From positions 248,001 to 312,000 of the forward strand of contig MU394098.1 in assembly GCA_022578605.1 (NCBI GenBank): a stretch of DNA of 64,000 nt. Reading direction: 5' to 3'. Under the pieces are notes generated by a model that was not told the DNA's origin, made no database searches, and saw only the letters and a program-made list of their open reading frames with translations. Below are positions 747 through 35,843 of the stretch, piece by piece. Position numbers and translations under genes: made by a program. The stretch comes from Camillea tinctor. Taxonomy: Eukaryota; Ascomycota; Sordariomycetes; Xylariales; Xylariaceae. Positions within the stretch are counted from its first letter, which is position 1; each line of letters begins with the position of its first letter.

Positions 747-3266
747 CGCTTCACTTGGGGAATGGCTCTCGTATAGACGTATGGAACCTCAGGGGTAACG
801 GGTACGCCACCACATGGGTCTTTTATCTGGGACTAGAGGAATTTATACGAACCATCTTATCCCGTACGGACTCTAGGCTTTCATTGGGCATCGGCGGACG
901 GGGCAAAATGACGATAGAAAGATGCACTACGTGCAAGACTGCATATCACCAAAATATGCACATATCTAACGACGTTCTAAGATTCATCAATTGCCAAAAA
1001 AGGTAGACGATAAGATATATATGTGGCAAGGCCCAAATCCCATTCGCCATTCACTTTGGTAACAGACACACTACAGAGACTAAACCTGTTCTAGATATTG
1101 ACGGCACAAGAACTTTACCGGAGTCCCACGATATGGGGGCCATAACCAACTCATTCCTGTCTTGAGGGCCTCCTACGGCGATGGATACGGCGATGGATAA
1201 TATTAGCGTCTGAGGACCCCATGTGCTCTCTGCCCCCATCTCATCCCCTCCTCTCCTGTACAATCCCTGCAACCACGAAGCACGCATCGCATCGCGGGGA
1301 ACCAAGTAACAAGTCAAAGCCCCCTTGGCGAGGACCAATTTTGTGCAAGATTACATCAGTACTTCCAATGTCTCAAATATGTTTGGTTCTCTCCCACAGA
1401 TAACTCACTGCTGAGCGTAAAAAAAAAGGCTAAAACCCTGGATGCTATTCAACTGAGGACTTGATCAAATACTTGGCATCCCCGGCGTGGATGACTGATC
1501 CTGCTGAGATTGAAAATGTAAATTACGCCTCACGTCGATCTCATGTAATGCGGAGGCAACGCCCTTAAAAAAACCACTGAAGTAATATACTCAGATTGTC
1601 TCGATACAATTATAGTGTATGTACGGTGTGCGATGTTACACCTAACGGTGTACAGCTATCGTGGCAGCGCCGTTGACGTTTATAAGCTGCATCTTACCTT
1701 GGTTGAACATCTTTCAGCTTTCTGGTTCTACAAGGTACGCATGGGATGTGGCTGATATGTACACATGAGCATTTGGCAAACGTTACAGCCAACATTGGCT
1801 TTCTCCGTGTGTAGTGGCCGGTTGAAGGCTTAATATTTAACTTTGAGGGCCATGGTCATTCTGCTACGTGGACACATATATAACCTAAATACTTCGGTGA
1901 ACGAGAAACTTAACATAATTCTATACGAGGATACCGAATGTCACATACAAGATTGAGTTGATATGAAATTATAGGAATGGAAGAACCAAGTTGGAACAGA
2001 ATAAAACTCGGCATAGAGATATAAGGTCGGCTGTACATGTTCGAAAGTAGCTGTAATGTTGTTTACATCTTGACGGCATATTCCATTTTAATTAATGAAT
2101 CTTGGAGATATTCGTATGTTGGCATATTTACCTTGTGACACCACGACTATAGTCCCGTTGCCTCGATCTTATAGGTAACTACTAGGGGTTGTTGTACGTA
2201 TTTATCATGATAGTTGGTAGCTTTATTAAGCTTATGTTAGGATATAAATTGCTACTAAAACCTTCTGTTTCTATGGACACGACCCGAGGACTCAATCTCA
2301 GCAGCATTCACAGCCAGGCGATATCTATTTTAAGTAAGACTCGGTAGAGATGATAAGCGAGACCAGTCAATTGTCAAGAGAAAATACGGACCAAACTGCT
2401 GTGTCCTGGTTTAACACGGGCTCGGTAATTACCAACGTAAGAAGAATGCACAAAGTAAGCGAGGGCTTCCACCAATAAATATCAAAAATAACTGTATGAC
2501 TTAATAACTAAGAGAAAATAGATGATGCTTGTATCATTGAGCATTTTCTGTTTGCTATGTGAGAGACAAAGCATAGACGAGTTGGTTATCAAGACATTAA
2601 GCTAAAAATATTTCTATGGACTCATAATCAACTTATTGAGAAAGATACGGGAGAATGGCACGAATATACCATGGGTTAATTCGAGTTTGATATATATATA
2701 TATATATATAGACATCCTACCGTTGACAACCTTTGTTACGCAGCTGCCCATTTGAGGTCCCTCCTGTATACGACTGGATGAAAGATGAAGACTATGAAGC
2801 TATTTATATGTGCAACCTTCTAAAAGGGGTAGTACAATATTCGCCTCCAAGCGCAAATAGCGGTGACGTGTATTTCTAAGCGGACGACAAAGATGTCGTC
2901 CTACGACACTCCGCGGGGGCTGATTGTATGCCGCTATGTAGTATGGATAAGCCATTCATTGTAGTAATGGGCGTTGGAGGCTTCAAACCTAGTTTCTAAG
3001 GGGATGAGCACGACTTCTGAATCATTGCACCACGTCCCTTTCTGCAGTTGCTAGCCGACGTAGACCTACGGATGACCATTTTTGGTGTATAAAAATAAGT
3101 AAAATTAAACGCAATTATTCTATAAGAGAGTGCTTGGGTTTGGAATGCGCGCTTAGTACATGCTTATTTCATACACTGCGTTTGAACCTAGACTCTATTA
3201 CGGAGTGTGGAGAGAAATAAATTGTCCTATAATAATTCTATACTGTAACATAGGCTCCGGGGTGCG
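747..3266. other. AT-rich intergenic region with a (TA)n tract
   Basis: No convincing gene was found here on either strand; the open frames are short and show no recognisable protein. A (TA)10 microsatellite lies at 2691-2710. The region presumably holds the promoter of the glucanase at its left end and the 3' flank of the NmrA-like gene at its right end. Confidence 0.6.
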
Positions 3267-17786: not shown

Positions 17787-18862
17787 TCATGGCCACTTCT
17801 CTCTGTCTAGCGGCGTAGCATGCTTGACATACCCTATCCGGTTATCCAAGACAGTCTTGCGCCCGTCCGGCACCACGGGGCCGTATTTCGGGTGCACCAG
17901 CAGCCCCGGAGTGAACGGGTCCACCTTGACCTTTTCCATCCGGTCCATAAGGCCCTTCCAGTTCACGCACTGGTGCGGGATAGTCCGGTTCCCACCAGGC
18001 AGGATACTCTCATCAAACCAGAACATAGTAAGAGGAGCCTCATCAGCCTTGCACATGATGGCCTCGACGAGCATCTGCAAGCAATGCACTGCAAAGAGTT
18101 AGTGGGATTAGGTATGTAGTTTGAGAGAGGTCATATACTCACAATTGTGTTCTAATTGAAGCTCTTGCTCTTCTTCTGTCATATTTGGGAAATAACGGTC
18201 CGGGAAATAGGACTGGTGTAGACGTTTCTTCATGCTTTGTCAGAAAAATGAATAAACCTTCGGGGAGAGGGAGCTAAAAAGGAGTTCTTTCATACCAAGC
18301 AGTGTAGTTGGTGTATAAACGCATAGTTGGCGAGATAGTTCCCGTTAGGCAGTTGGATACCTTGTTTCGTTCGACCGAGCTTCTCCATCATTTCCATTGG
18401 AATTTCAGCATAGAAATACTGCATAATTTTGTGCCAGGATGCATCGAGCTCTTCACTTGGCTGCCCAACTAAGGGGTAATCTTTGGATGTTTCAGTTTTC
18501 CCAAAGAACGTTGGTTCATACTTGACATATGATTTCAATGGCGCTTAGATAACAATTAGTAATGTAAGGGGATAGGGGAAGCATAGGAAATTATTACAAG
18601 TAATGTCATCAGCATCCTCTAACCTCTCCTTATTCAGCCACATCCAAGGAACCGACACAAGAACAGCAGAGTACGCCAGGAACGCCAAAAAGCCGCCGCA
18701 GGCAACAAGCAAACGAAATTTACGAGACGACTTCCATCTTAGGGCGGCTGGAGCGTGATACCCTTCAGACATGAGGCCATCCGACTCAGTAGCAGAGTTG
18801 GAAGACTGGTCGTCCTCAATAGGCATATACACTGCCTTGGAGCCCTTGTGTAACTTCTCCAT
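17787..18862 (-). CDS. UstYa-like (DUF3328) oxidase, predicted peptide cyclase
   Basis: Predicted 294-residue type II membrane protein in four exons: 18862-18598, 18543-18296, 18212-18143 and 18088-17787. One transmembrane helix lies at about residues 50-72 (LLVACGGFLAFLAYSAVLV). Two HxxHC motifs follow, HQLHC (18313-18299) and HNLHC, the latter split by intron 3. Both are the presumed metal ligands that define the UstYa family, and an AIMC element follows the second, as is usual. The acceptor of intron 2 is placed at CACCAG (18213) because the nearer AAAG is only a few bases from the CTGAC branch site and would break the frame. UstYa-like enzymes oxidatively cross-link aromatic residues in fungal ribosomal peptides. 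The small repeat precursor starts 700 bp away in divergent orientation. Confidence 0.88.
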
Positions 18863-19561
18863 ATTGTTGGATGGACACTAGAAACGATAGAATTGGGGTT
18901 GTAGAGAAGGAGGGAGCGGTTCAGAAGATGAATGTTTATCAGGTGGAGGAGGGCCAGACGTTCAAATGAGAATTTAAGCGAAGTCTCAATATCTGCCGGG
19001 GCCGAGAAAGCTTCGAAGCGATAAAGGATCCGGATATAAGTGAGGAGGCAAATCCGACTGGGGTGAAAGAGCGCGATGTAGTTGAATCAACCGGAAAACC
19101 AGGACGGTGCCCCACAGAGAGGAGGAAAGATAAGCATGTTGAAAGCCAGGAGGATACAGACTTTACGGGACCGAAGAACTTAGTCGATATACCTTCCTGA
19201 AACGATGTCTTCTAGATCACACGAGCACGAGGATACGGCTTAATCAACGGCGTAGGATTGGCCGCCCCGTGTGGGGAACATTGAATCCTTCTGCAGAGGT
19301 CTATAGTCTATACCGGAATCAACTTCGCCATCAACCAATATAATATAATCATTGGATATCAGGACAGGCCCTCCTGGTCTTACGGTCGAGGTTGAACAAG
19401 GTCAGGGTTCAGAACTGGTTGTAGGATTGAGATTTTGTATAGGCCAGTACCAATATTTAAAGCCGTCCCCTCGAGGACATCTTCACTCGAACCAGCAGCA
19501 TCAAGCACGAAACACTCCATCCTTCTTCAGCCTAAAAGCACTCTCTAAGATCAACTCCAAT
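18863..19561. promoter_or_regulatory. Shared divergent promoter of the UstYa-like gene and peptide precursor
   Basis: A 699-bp gap between two divergent start codons and therefore the presumed control region of both genes. On the precursor side a TATA-like element lies at 19454-19460, followed by a CA-rich stretch that looks like a 5' leader. No regulator gene lies between them, and I could not name a binding site. Confidence 0.6.
19454..19460 (+). promoter_or_regulatory. TATA-like element of the precursor gene
   Basis: TATTTAA about 102 bp upstream of the precursor ATG, at a usual distance for a fungal gene with a short leader. The assignment rests on position and sequence only. Confidence 0.5.
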
Positions 19562-19891
19562 ATGCAGTTTAAGCAGCTCGCCTTTGTGGCCCCGTTGTTC
19601 CTAGCTTTCGCCCTTGCCTCCCCCGTTGGAGACATCAGTAAGAACCTCCTCCCTCATCAACTCATCAAAACATCTAGTTACATGTTTTCATTGTCGACAT
19701 GTGTACTAATCTTAGTAGAACGTTCCCCTGAAGTAGAGGCACGCGACAAGGACGCAGACGCGATTTGGCTATGGAAGGAGAAGCGTGAAGAGCTTGAGAA
19801 AGACTCGGATGCCATATGGCTCTGGAAGAAGGAGCGCGAGGAGAAGCGTGATCAGCTGGAGAAGGACTCTGATGATATCTGGCTGTGGTAG
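19562..19891 (+). CDS. Secreted Kex2-processed repeat peptide precursor (predicted dikaritin-type RiPP)
   Basis: Small precursor of 83 (or 82) residues in two exons. Exon 1 (19562-19637) encodes a signal peptide (MQFKQLAFVAPLFLAFALAS). The intron has a GTAAGA donor, a TACTAAT branch site and a tandem acceptor at 19715 or 19718. Exon 2 encodes three repeats with cores ADAIWLW, SDAIWLW and SDDIWLW. Copies 1 and 2 are followed by Kex2-type Lys-Arg sites at residues 48-49 and 69-70, and copy 3 ends exactly at the stop, which suggests that the mature C-terminus is Trp. The Ile and Leu codons differ in all three copies (ATT/ATA/ATC; CTA/CTC/CTG) while the peptide stays IWLW, which points to selection on the peptide. 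With the divergent UstYa-like gene this fits a cyclised ribosomal peptide. A pheromone precursor is the main alternative, but the cores lack the Trp-Cys...Cys-Trp alpha-factor pattern. Confidence 0.85.
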   Translation: MQFKQLAFVAPLFLAFALASPVGDISKNLLPHQLIKTSSYMFSLSTCVLILVERSPEVEARDKDADAIWLWKEKREELEKDSDAIWLWKKEREEKRDQLEKDSDDIWLW

Positions 19892-31720: not shown

Positions 31721-33595
31721 TTACCAAGCAAAGCTTTCGTTGTGCCACCACACTCTCCGACCTTTCTTTACCCAAACCCCGACACAAGACCGCAATTCCT
31801 GTGCCATACCTGCTGGTCCGCATACTACCACCGCAATACGATCCTCAACGCTTTGTCTAAAAAGTTCGTCCACAATATTCTGAAAGTTCGGTCTCTTATT
31901 ATCATAAATCCGATCATACCTGTTCCGTCTGTCCTCTGATATATCGTTCATCTCTATTTGCTCGCCTCTAATACTAGCAGTCGTATCATTGTTTCTAGCA
32001 TCTAGTATATTCCCTGTAAGATATATCTGTATGTTATCACCGTCCATAATGCCATTCTTGTTTCCATTTACAGGCCATGTGGCATCGCCTGGTGTCCGAA
32101 CGGCCCAGATCATCTGGACTTTTACGGCTGAACTTTCACTCAGCATAGCGCGGTAGAGAGGCATAATAAAAGTTGCCCCAACACCGCCTGCCACTAAGAG
32201 CACACGGTTGAAGTCGATCCTAGCCCGATTCATAAAATGGGTAGTGGACCCGTAGGGGCCCTCAATAGATAAGGGGACCTTGAGGCCAGCTGAATTAGCA
32301 TTTGAAAGTCTGGCTAGATTCCTTGTCATCGGGCCGTTATGGCAGCGGGCAATTAATGTTAAAGCCCCGGAGTCATCGTCTACCGCTGCAACAGTGAACG
32401 GGTTAAATGCAAACTCAAACACTATGTTTGCTAGTGATACAGGATTCGGACTCGGCCGGGACGCGTAAGGTATGTTTATGTACACATGAGAGCCGGGCCG
32501 TTCGCGAAAGCGAGCTGACTTCTCTGCAGGAACATCGGCCACAATTTTGATGAGGTTGGTTCCTGGGATGGCCTCTATCGTGGTCGTCGCGGTGATGGTA
32601 TCGATCTTACGCTTGATCAGATCGGCGAGGAAAAGCACCAGAGCCCCACCAACATAGAAAGTCGAGTGATGAGCGTGGAAGTAAATAATGAGCGGAAGGG
32701 AGAGGGCGACTATAAGGTGAGTGATGAAAAAGACTCGATAAGAATATTCCCGGACAATTCCAAAGGATGTAGCACCAAGTAGACACATGCCAGTGAACGC
32801 ACTTATTCCAAGCGCTGGCACTAGCGAAACAACCTTTTGGCCGAGAATTCCCTCTTGGATGTAATAGTTAAGGTAAAGACATGTATGGAGAAATAATAAT
32901 AAATAGACGATACGGCCCAGGACACGATGCCAACGATTGACCTGCTCATGTGATGATTGAAAGGCCAACGCAAATGGATTCAGATTCTTCAACGCTAATA
33001 AGTATTGCGCTGGAAATTGTGATATGGCGACTAGCCCAAGTCGTTTAGTCAGGTGAAGATAGTCTGGATGCTGGTTAGCGATCTCAGTCATGGAGGGCCT
33101 TTCTTGAACAGCCACCAGGAACCCAACTATCCACCGAGTACCAGACGCTGGTCTACAAGCCAATGAGTAATTCACGGATGGGAACATATGACTTTTCGCA
33201 AACTTACCATTACCGGTGCCAACCGTGCAAAGAAATAACAACCAGAACGTCCATCCGATTCCTGCGATCAGTTGGGCCCGTTGCCCCCAGTTCTGTCCCA
33301 TGAATAGGATATCATCTCCTAGCCACCAGGCTACCCGCCTGACCAAGGTTACGCAAGAGCCAAATACGGACTGCCTTTGCTTCTTAAGTCTGGGTGAGTC
33401 CGGCACGGCCGAGTACGCGCCACGGTCAGAAGAAAGTGTTTTCCAGACTAGCCATACTACAAATCGGTAAAGCAGGAACAAAGCTACGGGCAAAAGAGCC
33501 GACAGATGTGCATAGAGGGCGTGTCGGTCGATGGAATGTCGCCTTGCCTGTTTCCCAGGAGCATCGAGGGCGACAAATTGGTATGGCCAGCCCAT
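31721..33595 (-). CDS. Ferric-reductase-like transmembrane flavocytochrome (FRE family)
   Basis: Predicted 576-residue plasma-membrane metalloreductase that passes electrons from NADPH through FAD and two hemes to external Fe(III) or Cu(II). Exons are 33595-33208 and 33063-31721. The 144-nt intron is a multiple of three and open, but splicing yields TGNDYLHLTKRLG, the family's conserved join. The bis-heme histidines are visible in two helices (RWHRVLGRIVYLLLFLH and THLIVALSLPLIIYFH). A PGSHVYINIP element and NPFT follow, the latter replacing the usual HPFT of the FAD site, and then AGGVGATFIMP and VVCGPAGM of the NADP domain. The start at MGWPYQF is preferred over an in-frame Met 33 codons upstream because the family begins there. 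It could serve iron uptake or a pathway-specific reductase role. Confidence 0.88.
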   Translation of the reverse strand: MGWPYQFVALDAPGKQARRHSIDRHALYAHLSALLPVALFLLYRFVVWLVWKTLSSDRGAYSAVPDSPRLKKQRQSVFGSCVTLVRRVAWWLGDDILFMGQNWGQRAQLIAGIGWTFWLLFLCTVGTGNGKFAKSHMFPSVNYSLACRPASGTRWIVGFLVAVQERPSMTEIANQHPDYLHLTKRLGLVAISQFPAQYLLALKNLNPFALAFQSSHEQVNRWHRVLGRIVYLLLFLHTCLYLNYYIQEGILGQKVVSLVPALGISAFTGMCLLGATSFGIVREYSYRVFFITHLIVALSLPLIIYFHAHHSTFYVGGALVLFLADLIKRKIDTITATTTIEAIPGTNLIKIVADVPAEKSARFRERPGSHVYINIPYASRPSPNPVSLANIVFEFAFNPFTVAAVDDDSGALTLIARCHNGPMTRNLARLSNANSAGLKVPLSIEGPYGSTTHFMNRARIDFNRVLLVAGGVGATFIMPLYRAMLSESSAVKVQMIWAVRTPGDATWPVNGNKNGIMDGDNIQIYLTGNILDARNNDTTASIRGEQIEMNDISEDRRNRYDRIYDNKRPNFQNIVDELFRQSVEDRIAVVVCGPAGMAQELRSCVGVWVKKGRRVWWHNESFAW

Positions 33596-35843
33596 AATAT
33601 ATGTCGGGCCCTTCCCTTTTATTGTTCTGTTTTCGGAATTCTTCCTTTGACTCGGGAGATTGACTTCCGGTGGCGTTATAATCGGCACGGACAAGTTATA
33701 AGTGCGTCCCGTTCGACGCGTCGAAGATGAATCGTTGTCGGGTTCCGGGTGCTCGGGAAAATCAGGGATGAGAAGCTAGGATCAGTCCCGATTATTCTAT
33801 CCCTCGTACAGTGGGAATGGGGCAGGTTATGCGTGTCTTGCAGGTAACTTGAAAATACGTAGGTTAGGTTAAATGGGTTTCAGTCACGATTTCGCATGTC
33901 CAACTACTAATGCGAGATTAGATTTACCCAGACCCTGGTCTCGGGACAGATTTAACTATAGATTGATTACATACATGCATGTCTAGTACCGGCTGGGTTA
34001 GTAGGTTACATTAGTACGTCCCAAGTAGGAACTCCATATTTGTACAGGGATTAAATTGACTACCTTCCATTATGTAATCATAGGGAGAGTAGTATGTAAA
34101 TCCCTCCGTGGAAAAATCCACGGAAAATCAGATCACAAAGTTACAAGTTTGTCGTGCAAATAGACTTTGGTATACGTGACTCAGGTCTCTCACTGTTGAA
34201 TGATTAAACTTACTAAGTAGGTTAGTGGGCACAGTAGGTACAAGTTTCCCTATCTCAAAGAAACTGTTGTCTCTAATTGAGAGTATTGAATGGCTGTAAA
34301 GGTGCTTCAGTCTCCTTTTTTCCGAGTAGTCTTGACCAATAAGGAGCCCCGGAAATCAATTAGGTTTACGGGTAATTGTGGTTGGGAATTAGACCTAGTT
34401 AGATAACTTTAACAGAATCAGCAGTTAATGCTTATGAAAACGAACATGTTTTAAATTTCCGAGAACCTGATCCGGGGAGAGTTTGCGTTGCTTAGTAAAT
34501 TCTGTAGGCAAGCTCTAGACGGAATATATATACCGGCAAAGGAAATATGAGAGATGGGGAGGCTAGCCAAGGTGATATTGTTCGCGACAGGGTCAGACAG
34601 GTCGATAAAACAATGGTATTTTTTATCGAGTCGCAAATAAGGACGTTGACTTCCACTAAGCCAGATATAGATTTGAGGTTTCTTTAAACACTATCTATTC
34701 TCCTGTTTTCTGAGTTCATCGCGTGGGTATAGAGTGTATAAGAATTTGATTCGTCCCTTTCCCAATATATGTAGACCTAGAAGTCTAAACATCTCCAGCC
34801 CATATTTTACAACTTCTATTTCTCACAAGCAATTCCTCATGAAGCTAAATGAACAAGGAAATATCCAAACTCATGATGGACCATATTAAAAACAGTGTAA
34901 TAGGAAAAAGGAGGATGTTATACTTACTTCTGGACCTATCCTACTTTAGAGCTATGCAAGTGTTTAATATTAGTAGCAATAAATTAGTTTCTGCTTTATT
35001 GATTTCATAATGTCATGACCGGGAAGAGCCCGTACGTTAGGGGAGCGAGAGATGTATATGTGTATTAAGTCACGTGATATATCGAACCTCATATCCCTAC
35101 CCCTATTTACAATATCCTCCATTGTTGAGTATCCTCTTTTATATTCTACAACGACCTCAATTGTCATAAGCTCTTCCACGAGGACTTTCAAAGCTGAAAT
35201 TCAATAACTCGTAGTTGCTGATCTCAGGACCCGTTGCATTTATAATCAAACGTTACCAAGTATTGAATGGAATTCCTGATTTAAAAAGCCTGTCGTCGTT
35301 GTTCACCTTTGTTTCGCCAGATCAGTCTAGCTTCTAGTATGTGACTCATTTGGTTGCTATATAGAGCCATTCAATACTTTCGCTTGATTTGAAATCACCC
35401 GCAACATTGTGGAAATAATCCATTCAATATAGAGATGCCGCATGTACTTTGACGATTAGGTTGAATCCAGCTAGTAGGAAATTCATATCTATTGGTTTGG
35501 TCGGTGATTTTATTACCCTAATAGATGTACTCCCCAGCCTTCCTCCTCGCGGATTGAGGTTAAATCGACCGCATTCTATGTAATGTGCCATTTTTTGAAG
35601 CATTGACCATTTTAAGGTCAAAAGATCAATAAATATCTATCAGTATGACTGGGCTGAGTCCAAGTAGACAATCAATATAAACTCCAGAATTAGAAACAGA
35701 ATACCATAGACTAGCCGCCTATAGTAAGAAAGCATTCACCATTCAATGCTAAGTAACCATGTCCATTCAACAGATGGGTTACTAGTGCTTCCATATACTA
35801 GTACTTCTAAACGGTGTTGAATGGTAGATTCTTCCCAGAAAAC
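33596..35843. other. AT-rich intergenic region with repeated CCATTCAATACT motifs
   Basis: Promoter side of the reductase (up to about 34 kb), then about 1.8 kb without a gene. It contains most copies of the 12-mer motif annotated separately. Short GTTAGTAGGTTA-type repeats occur near 33998 and 34210. Confidence 0.55.

What the first reader, a model, noticed from the sequence alone, without database searches (positions are those of the whole stretch)
17787..19891. Minimal UstYa + repeat-precursor locus: a candidate undescribed ribosomal cyclopeptide
Seen: a UstYa/DUF3328 gene with two HxxHC motifs lies divergent from an 83-residue secreted precursor that carries three (A/S)D(A/D)IWLW cores with Lys-Arg sites after copies 1 and 2. 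Known: in the ustiloxin, phomopsin and asperipin pathways Kex2-released cores from such precursors are cross-linked by UstYa-type enzymes. Inference: this locus makes a Trp-containing cyclic peptide. The core has two Trp and no Tyr, unlike the Tyr-based cores of the named members, so a Trp-centred cross-link would be new chemistry. No tyrosinase, methyltransferase or transporter is adjacent, so the pathway may be minimal or its genes split.
Basis: partly seen in the sequence, partly recalled or inferred. Interest (0 to 1): 0.93.

Follow-up and report, generated by a model that had tools for sequence, protein, structure and literature searches.

The report
Tryptophan-core fungal peptide plus copper enzyme
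A wood-inhabiting fungus carries a two-gene locus, found again in related fungi, that probably makes a small tryptophan-rich secreted peptide modified by a copper enzyme, and its tyrosine-free core may mean a cross-link not yet described for this enzyme family.

Summary
The window is Camillea tinctor. A 299-aa UstYa/DUF3328 protein (PF11807, E 5e-39, HQLHC and HNLHC) lies 699 bp from, and divergent to, a secreted-type 82-aa precursor with three DxDxIWLW copies and Lys-Arg sites. The copies encode the same IWLW with different synonymous codons, so selection keeps the peptide.

Protein searches gave 11 such precursors, the window's included: 42 of 42 W-x-W copies read D-x-D-x-[I/V]-W-L-W. For 6 of the 9 other named-source precursors, a 66-91% identical UstYa comes from a contig of the same length in the same organism; in 4 of these the locus tags differ by 1-2. 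The other 3 were not resolved.

No tyrosinase match lies on the contig and no P450 match within about 150 kb. Best reading: a minimal dikaritin-type pathway in which one binuclear-copper DUF3328 enzyme oxidises a Tyr-free core, most likely cross-linking Trp to Ile/Val. The pairing is well supported; the chemistry is inferred and untested. I found no IWLW precursor in the open-access text searched. A new variant of a known kind.

The parts
17787..18862 (-). UstYa/DUF3328 gene, four exons (18862-18598, 18543-18296, 18227-18144, 18088-17787), 299 aa, one N-terminal hydrophobic segment near residues 49-76, HQLHC and HNLHC motifs
   Evidence: Exon model and translation; PF11807 E 5e-39; motifs and hydropathy; 48 homologues at E <= 0.001
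18863..19561 (.). 699-bp divergent intergenic region, possible shared promoter
   Evidence: Distance between the two ATGs; the promoter role is inference
19562..19891 (+). Precursor gene, exons 19562-19637 and 19719-19891, 82 aa, signal-peptide-like N terminus and three core copies
   Evidence: same as database protein P0001
19638..19718 (+). Intron of the precursor gene (GT...AG); the acceptor at 19718 creates a Lys-Arg at residues 26-27
   Evidence: Comparison
19751..19774 (+). Core copy 1: DADA-IWLW
19781..19786 (+). Lys-Arg (Kex2-type site) after copy 1
   Evidence: Read
19802..19825 (+). Core copy 2: DSDA-IWLW
19844..19849 (+). Lys-Arg (Kex2-type site) after copy 2
   Evidence: Read
19865..19888 (+). 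Core copy 3: DSDD-IWLW, ending directly at the stop codon

Best explanation
The locus is a minimal two-gene dikaritin-type pathway. The precursor enters the secretory route by its signal peptide (inferred from sequence). The kexin that the genome encodes elsewhere cuts at Lys-Arg sites and other peptidases trim the ends (inferred). The membrane-anchored UstYa enzyme, probably a dimer with two copper ions per monomer held by HxxHC...HxxHC in the lumen of the Golgi or a related compartment, as reported for the DUF3328 protein CctR, oxidises the IWLW core (inferred from the family). The acidic DxDx stretch just before each core is probably a recognition flank, like the acidic ED before the Tyr in ustiloxin and phomopsin repeats (inferred). 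The most likely reaction is an intramolecular cross-link between a Trp indole and a neighbouring side chain, with the always beta-branched first residue (Ile or Val) as the best partner candidate, because Ile is the partner of Tyr in ustiloxins, phomopsins and epichloecyclins. As all steps happen inside the secretory pathway, no transporter gene is needed. Shown here: both genes, recurring pairing, conserved core, no detected tailoring genes nearby. Not shown: expression, processing, any modification, product or function.
For: UstYa domain with both HxxHC motifs; 39 columns invariant over 30 rows (the window and 29 of 48 hits), including the four motif His and two motif Cys. Precursor family: 11 proteins (window's included) of 12 hits, 42 of 42 W-x-W copies D-x-D-x-[IV]-W-L-W, next residue Lys in 31 of 31 internal copies, protein end in 11 of 11 last copies. 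Synonymous codon differences with residues kept. One kexin-type P domain gene in the genome. CctR: copper, dimer, O2, C-H oxidation, and AprY named as a copper-dependent cyclase (PMC12435403). EDYXI repeats (PMC6339444, passage).
Against: No transcript, peptide or mass evidence. The relatives were found with words taken from the core and copies were counted by the pattern W-x-W, so '42 of 42' is partly by selection; a metagenomic fragment, P0060 (E 6e-3), reads AVWLG instead of VWLW. Of 31 gaps between copies, 12 hold Lys-Lys but no Lys-Arg, a weaker Kex2 site (recalled). For 3 of the 9 named relatives (P0002, P0003, P0005) no UstYa on a contig of that length was listed, and for 2 of the 6 paired ones the locus tags are far apart. 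25 of 32 UstYa tree rows have no IWLW precursor found; unannotated small genes could explain this, but so could other substrates. 14 of the 28 Pfam-scanned frames of the window had no match, so an unknown accessory gene is possible.
Confidence: 0.6

Rival explanations
1. The UstYa enzyme does modify the IWLW core but without a cross-link: hydroxylation, halogenation or desaturation of Trp, Ile or Leu, giving a linear decorated peptide.
For: DUF3328 members hydroxylate (CctR), halogenate (ApnU named) and are needed for desaturation (phomopsin UstYa homologues) (PMC12435403; PMC10512285, passage). CctR acts on one C-H bond.
Against: For Kex2-type repeat precursors with a neighbouring DUF3328 gene, the cases described in the review passages seen are cyclic. 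A single-enzyme locus that only decorates a linear ribosomal peptide is not described in what I read.
Confidence: 0.2
2. The precursor yields plain linear signalling or defence peptides by Kex2, as for mating pheromones, and the UstYa gene beside it acts on something else.
For: Of 7878 Kex2-processed repeat proteins, 6120 had no DUF3328 gene among the 15 closest genes (PMC7329392, passages); the repeat layout alone does not prove modification.
Against: A 66-91% identical UstYa on a contig of the same length in 6 of 9 named relatives besides the window. Pheromone precursors, with three exceptions, lack DUF3328 neighbours (PMC7329392, abstract passage).
Confidence: 0.12
3. The precursor is an uncut secreted protein whose WLW repeats serve structure or membrane contact; the Lys-Arg pairs are incidental to a Lys/Glu-rich linker.
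For: The linkers are rich in Lys, Glu and Arg, and 12 of 31 gaps have Lys-Lys only; P0006 and P0058 have no Lys-Arg between copies at all.
Against: Each copy is followed by Lys or ends the protein, Lys-Arg lies between copies in 9 of 11 proteins (19 of 31 gaps), and the UstYa pairing recurs.
Confidence: 0.05

Closest known systems
Dikaritins: ustiloxin, phomopsin and asperipin-2a pathways
   Same: Signal peptide plus repeated cores separated by Kex2-type sites; DUF3328 gene near the precursor; acidic residues just before the core as in the EDYXI repeats.
   Different: No Tyr in the core, two Trp instead; no other known tailoring gene found beside it (28 of 43 long frames scanned), whereas the ustiloxin cluster has 15 genes and asperipin-2a four.
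Epichloecyclins (GigA)
   Same: Kex2-type repeat precursor; cross-link described between an N-terminal Ile and an internal aromatic residue, the same order as Ile...Trp here.
   Different: Tyr, not Trp; cyclic nonapeptides. Sequence likeness was not tested here.
Victorin
   Same: Described as cross-linked between the C-terminal aromatic residue (Phe) and an internal Leu; here too the core ends with an aromatic residue.
   Different: Phe, not Trp; chlorinated; cluster-encoded peptidases.
Kex2-processed repeat protein type P-3 of Umemura 2020 (Trp with Pro)
   Same: Trp-bearing repeats, DUF3328 among the 15 closest genes in 4 of 7.
   Different: Listed genera are Fonsecaea, Cladophialophora, Galerina, Psilocybe and Coprinellus; 'W accompanied by P' does not fit IWLW. 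Its sequences were not seen.
Amatoxins and phallotoxins
   Same: Fungal ribosomal peptides with a Trp side-chain cross-link, Trp to Cys, so a Trp bridge as such is not new in fungi.
   Different: Mushroom family with a leader/prolyl-oligopeptidase route; no Cys in the window precursor.
Plant BURP-domain cyclases and bacterial radical-SAM Ile-Trp cross-links
   Same: BURP: copper-dependent cross-linking with four coordinating His, compared with CctR by its authors, Trp-indole links in the lyciumin type. Radical SAM: an isoleucine-tryptophan cross-link, known to me here only from a reference title.
   Different: Unrelated enzyme families and organisms; analogies only.

Membership tests
UstYa/DUF3328 (PF11807) | Match to the family profile over its curated cut-off | tested here: met
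   134.9 bits against cut-off 25, E 5e-39, profile positions 5-215 of 220
UstYa/DUF3328 (PF11807) | HxxHC(x)nHxxHC copper motif, one HxxHC on each of two helices | tested here: met
   HQLHC 166-170 and HNLHC 198-202, His and Cys invariant in 30 rows; both lie in predicted helices 163-177 and 189-212 of the 91% identical homologue P0007 (mean pLDDT 70.3, pTM 0.58, the other four models 49.0-57.6, so a weak model; that the helices face each other was not checked)
UstYa/DUF3328 (PF11807) | Copper, O2 and dimer dependence | not testable with these tools
   Reported for CctR in PMC12435403; needs protein
Kex2-processed repeat protein | Signal peptide and near-identical repeats separated by Kex2 sites | tested here: met
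   Hydrophobic N terminus (no signal-peptide program was used), three copies with Lys-Arg between; kexin-type P domain in the genome
Dikaritin (repeat precursor cyclised by a UstYa homologue) | UstYa-type gene near the precursor | tested here: met
   Divergent neighbours, 699 bp; contig of the same length in 6 of 9 other named relatives
Dikaritin (repeat precursor cyclised by a UstYa homologue) | Cyclic product by side-chain cross-link | not testable with these tools
   Needs LC-MS/MS or NMR
Ustiloxin/phomopsin type | Tyr in the core (EDYXI) | tested here: not met
   No Tyr in the window precursor; 0 Tyr in 10 of 11 family members, the one Tyr of P0055 lying before its conserved start MQFKQ
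Ustiloxin/phomopsin type | Tyrosinase gene in the cluster | tested here: not met
   None of the 21 tyrosinase matches of the genome lies on contig C48

The most novel reading that the evidence does not exclude
A single binuclear-copper DUF3328 enzyme builds a Trp-centred macrocycle (Trp indole to the Ile/Val beta carbon, or Trp to Trp) in an IWLW core: a Tyr-free, two-gene class of fungal ribosomal cyclic peptides present in Camillea, Biscogniauxia, Xylaria and kin, and in Thyridium.
Probability: 0.48. Interest if true: 0.82.

Novelty: new variant of a known kind. Interest (0 to 1): 0.68.

Why it matters
If the cross-link is at Trp, a family whose copper chemistry was first reported in 2025 would gain a new bond type, made by one enzyme on a short encoded core, which is about the simplest setting for studying how DUF3328 proteins choose between ring closure and other oxidations. 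The DxDx-[I/V]WLW core in ten named-source precursors (P0056 has no named source) gives a natural series of substrates, and at least seven enzymes to go with them. It also gives a mining rule: Tyr-free, Trp-bearing repeats beside DUF3328 genes.

Tried and rejected
Fold comparison: the AlphaFold2 model of P0007 matched nothing in the PDB at E <= 0.001 (113 matches with E <= 10, best 0.87), and the profile of 30 UstYa rows matched no PDB sequence at E <= 1; with a model this weak the first says little. Pfam PF28562, listed for P0006, is not in the copy held, so its meaning stays open; one search gave P0006 only two sub-cut-off matches (DUF2652 E 0.0073, N-SET E 0.22), rejected as chance. NCBIfam: of four proteins only P0001 had a match, to a cytochrome biogenesis model at E 0.0064 and below its cut-off, rejected as chance. 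Cyclobiscognioxin A from Biscogniauxia was considered as a possible product and rejected: cyclo-(Phe-Leu-Leu-Leu-Ile), no Trp (PMC12783183, passages). A second IWLW precursor in the same genome was sought; the only two matches are the two exons of this gene. The idea that IWLW is chance was rejected by the codon pattern and the homologues. Genomic context of the relatives could not be read directly: apart from the window's own genome, the DNA collections I could search are prokaryotic, viral or plasmid, so contig lengths and locus tags were used instead.

Full report
What is there. The window is positions 248001-312000 of contig C48 (320,113 bases) of a 44.7-Mb fungal genome. The precursor protein P0001 of Camillea tinctor lies on a contig of the same length and equals the window's precursor, so the window is that species (Xylariales). 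On the minus strand, four exons at 18862-17787 encode a 299-aa protein with one Pfam match at E <= 0.01, UstYa, E 5e-39, HQLHC and HNLHC, and one hydrophobic segment near residues 49-76. On the plus strand, starting 699 bp away, two exons encode an 82-aa protein with a hydrophobic N terminus and three copies, DADAIWLW, DSDAIWLW and DSDDIWLW, with Lys-Arg after copies 1 and 2.

Is it more than chance? The IWLW codons of the three copies are ATT-TGG-CTA-TGG, ATA-TGG-CTC-TGG and ATC-TGG-CTG-TGG. Across the 8-codon block the pairwise differences are 2, 2 and 14 at codon positions 1, 2 and 3, and 0, 0 and 6 within IWLW: the Ile and Leu third bases differ in every pair while the peptide is kept. A scan of the window's six frames for repeated 4-mers separated by dibasic sites found only this place.

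Relatives. Two protein searches, one with the precursor and one with an alignment of it, found 12 proteins. I counted cores in 11, the window's own P0001 among them; the twelfth, P0060 (E 6e-3), is a 49-aa metagenomic fragment reading AVWLG and was left out. The 11 hold 42 W-x-W copies, all D-x-D-x-[I/V]-W-L-W: Ile in 26, Val in 16; the next residue is Lys in all 31 internal copies, and the last copy ends the protein in all 11. The pattern counted was W-x-W and the search works by shared 5-residue words, which favours the core, so degenerate copies and divergent members would be missed. Of the 31 gaps between copies 19 hold Lys-Arg and 12 only Lys-Lys. Ten precursors have named sources: Camillea, three Biscogniauxia (two of them B. 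mediterranea), two Xylaria, two Xylariaceae, one Xylariomycetidae, and Thyridium curvatum, which belongs to another subclass.

Recurring pairing. The UstYa search gave 48 proteins at E <= 0.001. In four pairs the tags differ by 1-2; in the last two only the contig length agrees. That equal lengths mean the same contig is inference. For Biscogniauxia FL1348, the other B. mediterranea record and Thyridium no such pair was listed; clustering at 90% identity may hide the first two. A tree of 32 rows (the window plus 31 of 48 hits; 17 hits, mostly fragments, left out) puts all 7 rows with a known IWLW precursor in a 12-row group with Xylaria, Nemania and kin (support 88/86, below the tool's star); the label needs 4 changes against a shuffled mean of 6.4, as low in 5 of 500 shuffles. 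Five rows in that group and all 20 outside have no IWLW precursor found. That may be missing annotation or other substrates, and I could not tell which.

Surroundings. Of 43 stop-to-stop frames of at least 130 aa in the window, 28 were scanned with Pfam (8, 10, 10); 14 of these had no match. The nearest recognisable genes are an ankyrin-repeat protein upstream and an eIF2A-domain gene downstream; further off are a FAD-binding protein, an FMN-dependent dehydrogenase and a ferric-reductase-type protein. None of 21 tyrosinase matches in the genome lies on contig C48; the only P450 match on C48 is about 158 kb away (92 of 283 candidates scored, so a lower bound). Short exons and unknown families would escape this. 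The genome has one kexin-type P domain gene, on C32.

How it probably works. CctR, a DUF3328 protein, is reported as a membrane-associated homodimer whose HxxHC...HxxHC motif binds two copper ions per monomer and which uses O2 to hydroxylate a C-H bond; the authors name AprY as a copper-dependent cyclase (PMC12435403, section 3 read in both parts). The window enzyme has the motif, an anchor-like segment and two further invariant Cys (212, 240). AlphaFold2 of the homologue P0007 puts the motifs on two helices (163-177, 189-212), at modest confidence (mean pLDDT 70.3, pTM 0.58). Ustiloxin and phomopsin repeats carry acidic residues before the core, EDYXI (PMC6339444, passage); here DxDx stands at the same place, with both Asp in 42 of 42 copies. 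In ustiloxins and phomopsins the Tyr is joined to an Ile, and in epichloecyclins an N-terminal Ile to a Tyr (PMC9233826, passages). With no Tyr, two Trp in every copy and an always beta-branched first residue, a Trp-to-Ile/Val link is my leading guess; Trp-to-Trp and Trp-to-Leu are open. All chemistry is inference.

What is known. IWLWK, AIWLW, DIWLW and VWLWK occur in no relevant paper of the held open-access library (the one text hit is irrelevant). Searches for DUF3328/UstYa with tryptophan, Trp or cross-link terms showed no Trp cross-link by this family in the titles and abstract starts listed; of these only part was listed (20 of 56; 40 of 215; 10 of 11; 12 of 16). Most subscription papers are not held and supplements could not be opened; in particular the tables of Umemura 2020 may list members of this family. 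That survey notes that 65.6% of repeats with a DUF3328 neighbour contain Tyr, and that one type found in two phyla has Trp with Pro (PMC7329392, passages; section 6 part 1). Trp bridges as such are known elsewhere: Trp-Cys in amatoxins and phallotoxins, Trp-indole links in plant lyciumins, and a bacterial Ile-Trp cross-link seen here only as a reference title.

Verdict. A real enzyme-substrate pair of dikaritin kind that recurs in related fungi, with an unusual Tyr-free Trp core: a new variant of a known kind. Whether it is new chemistry depends on one in vitro or LC-MS/MS experiment.

Noticed in passing
L011, minus strand from about 2445 (genome C5 near 987 kb): A second repeat precursor candidate with 7 copies of NNVDAAATRSGWLYI before Lys, about 3 kb from a run of UstYa matches at C5:990480-999318; its repeat has both Trp and Tyr.
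   Followed up: partly
L015, minus strand near 2697 (genome C16 near 434 kb): About 22 copies of a DYAIR-type repeat in a signal-peptide-like frame, about 2 kb from UstYa matches at C16:436031-436758: an ustiloxin-like candidate in the same genome (the scan hit a shifted frame of it).
   Followed up: partly
L013, minus strand near 3242 (genome C26 near 419 kb): Three copies of SADYS[TI]LVYSIG with dibasic sites, 1.7 kb from a UstYa match at C26:420937. In all, 4 of the 15 stretches scanned (14 stretches around UstYa matches, and the window) hold such a repeat.
   Followed up: partly
P0059 (Xylariomycetidae sp. FL0641) and P0005 (Thyridium curvatum): A second kind of Trp unit sits between IWLW units: DEWKDEGGPSVIWPAKR twice in P0059 and TMFWAGKKR once in P0005; perhaps a second product from one precursor.
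   Followed up: no
P0060 (metagenomic fragment, 49 aa): Repeats reading DADAVWLGKK: a core with Gly in place of the last Trp, which would bear on which Trp is needed.
   Followed up: no
P0010 and P0027 (Kalmusia, Karstenula): UstYa proteins of these two fungi pair (99/93) and sit with Eutypa and Apiospora inside the wider Xylaria-like group (87/78 and 80/55); as members of another class (recalled) this hints weakly at horizontal transfer.
   Followed up: no
window 31721-33775 (-): A ferric-reductase-type transmembrane protein about 12 kb from the pair; CctR needs electron input, so a link is conceivable but there is no evidence for it.
   Followed up: no
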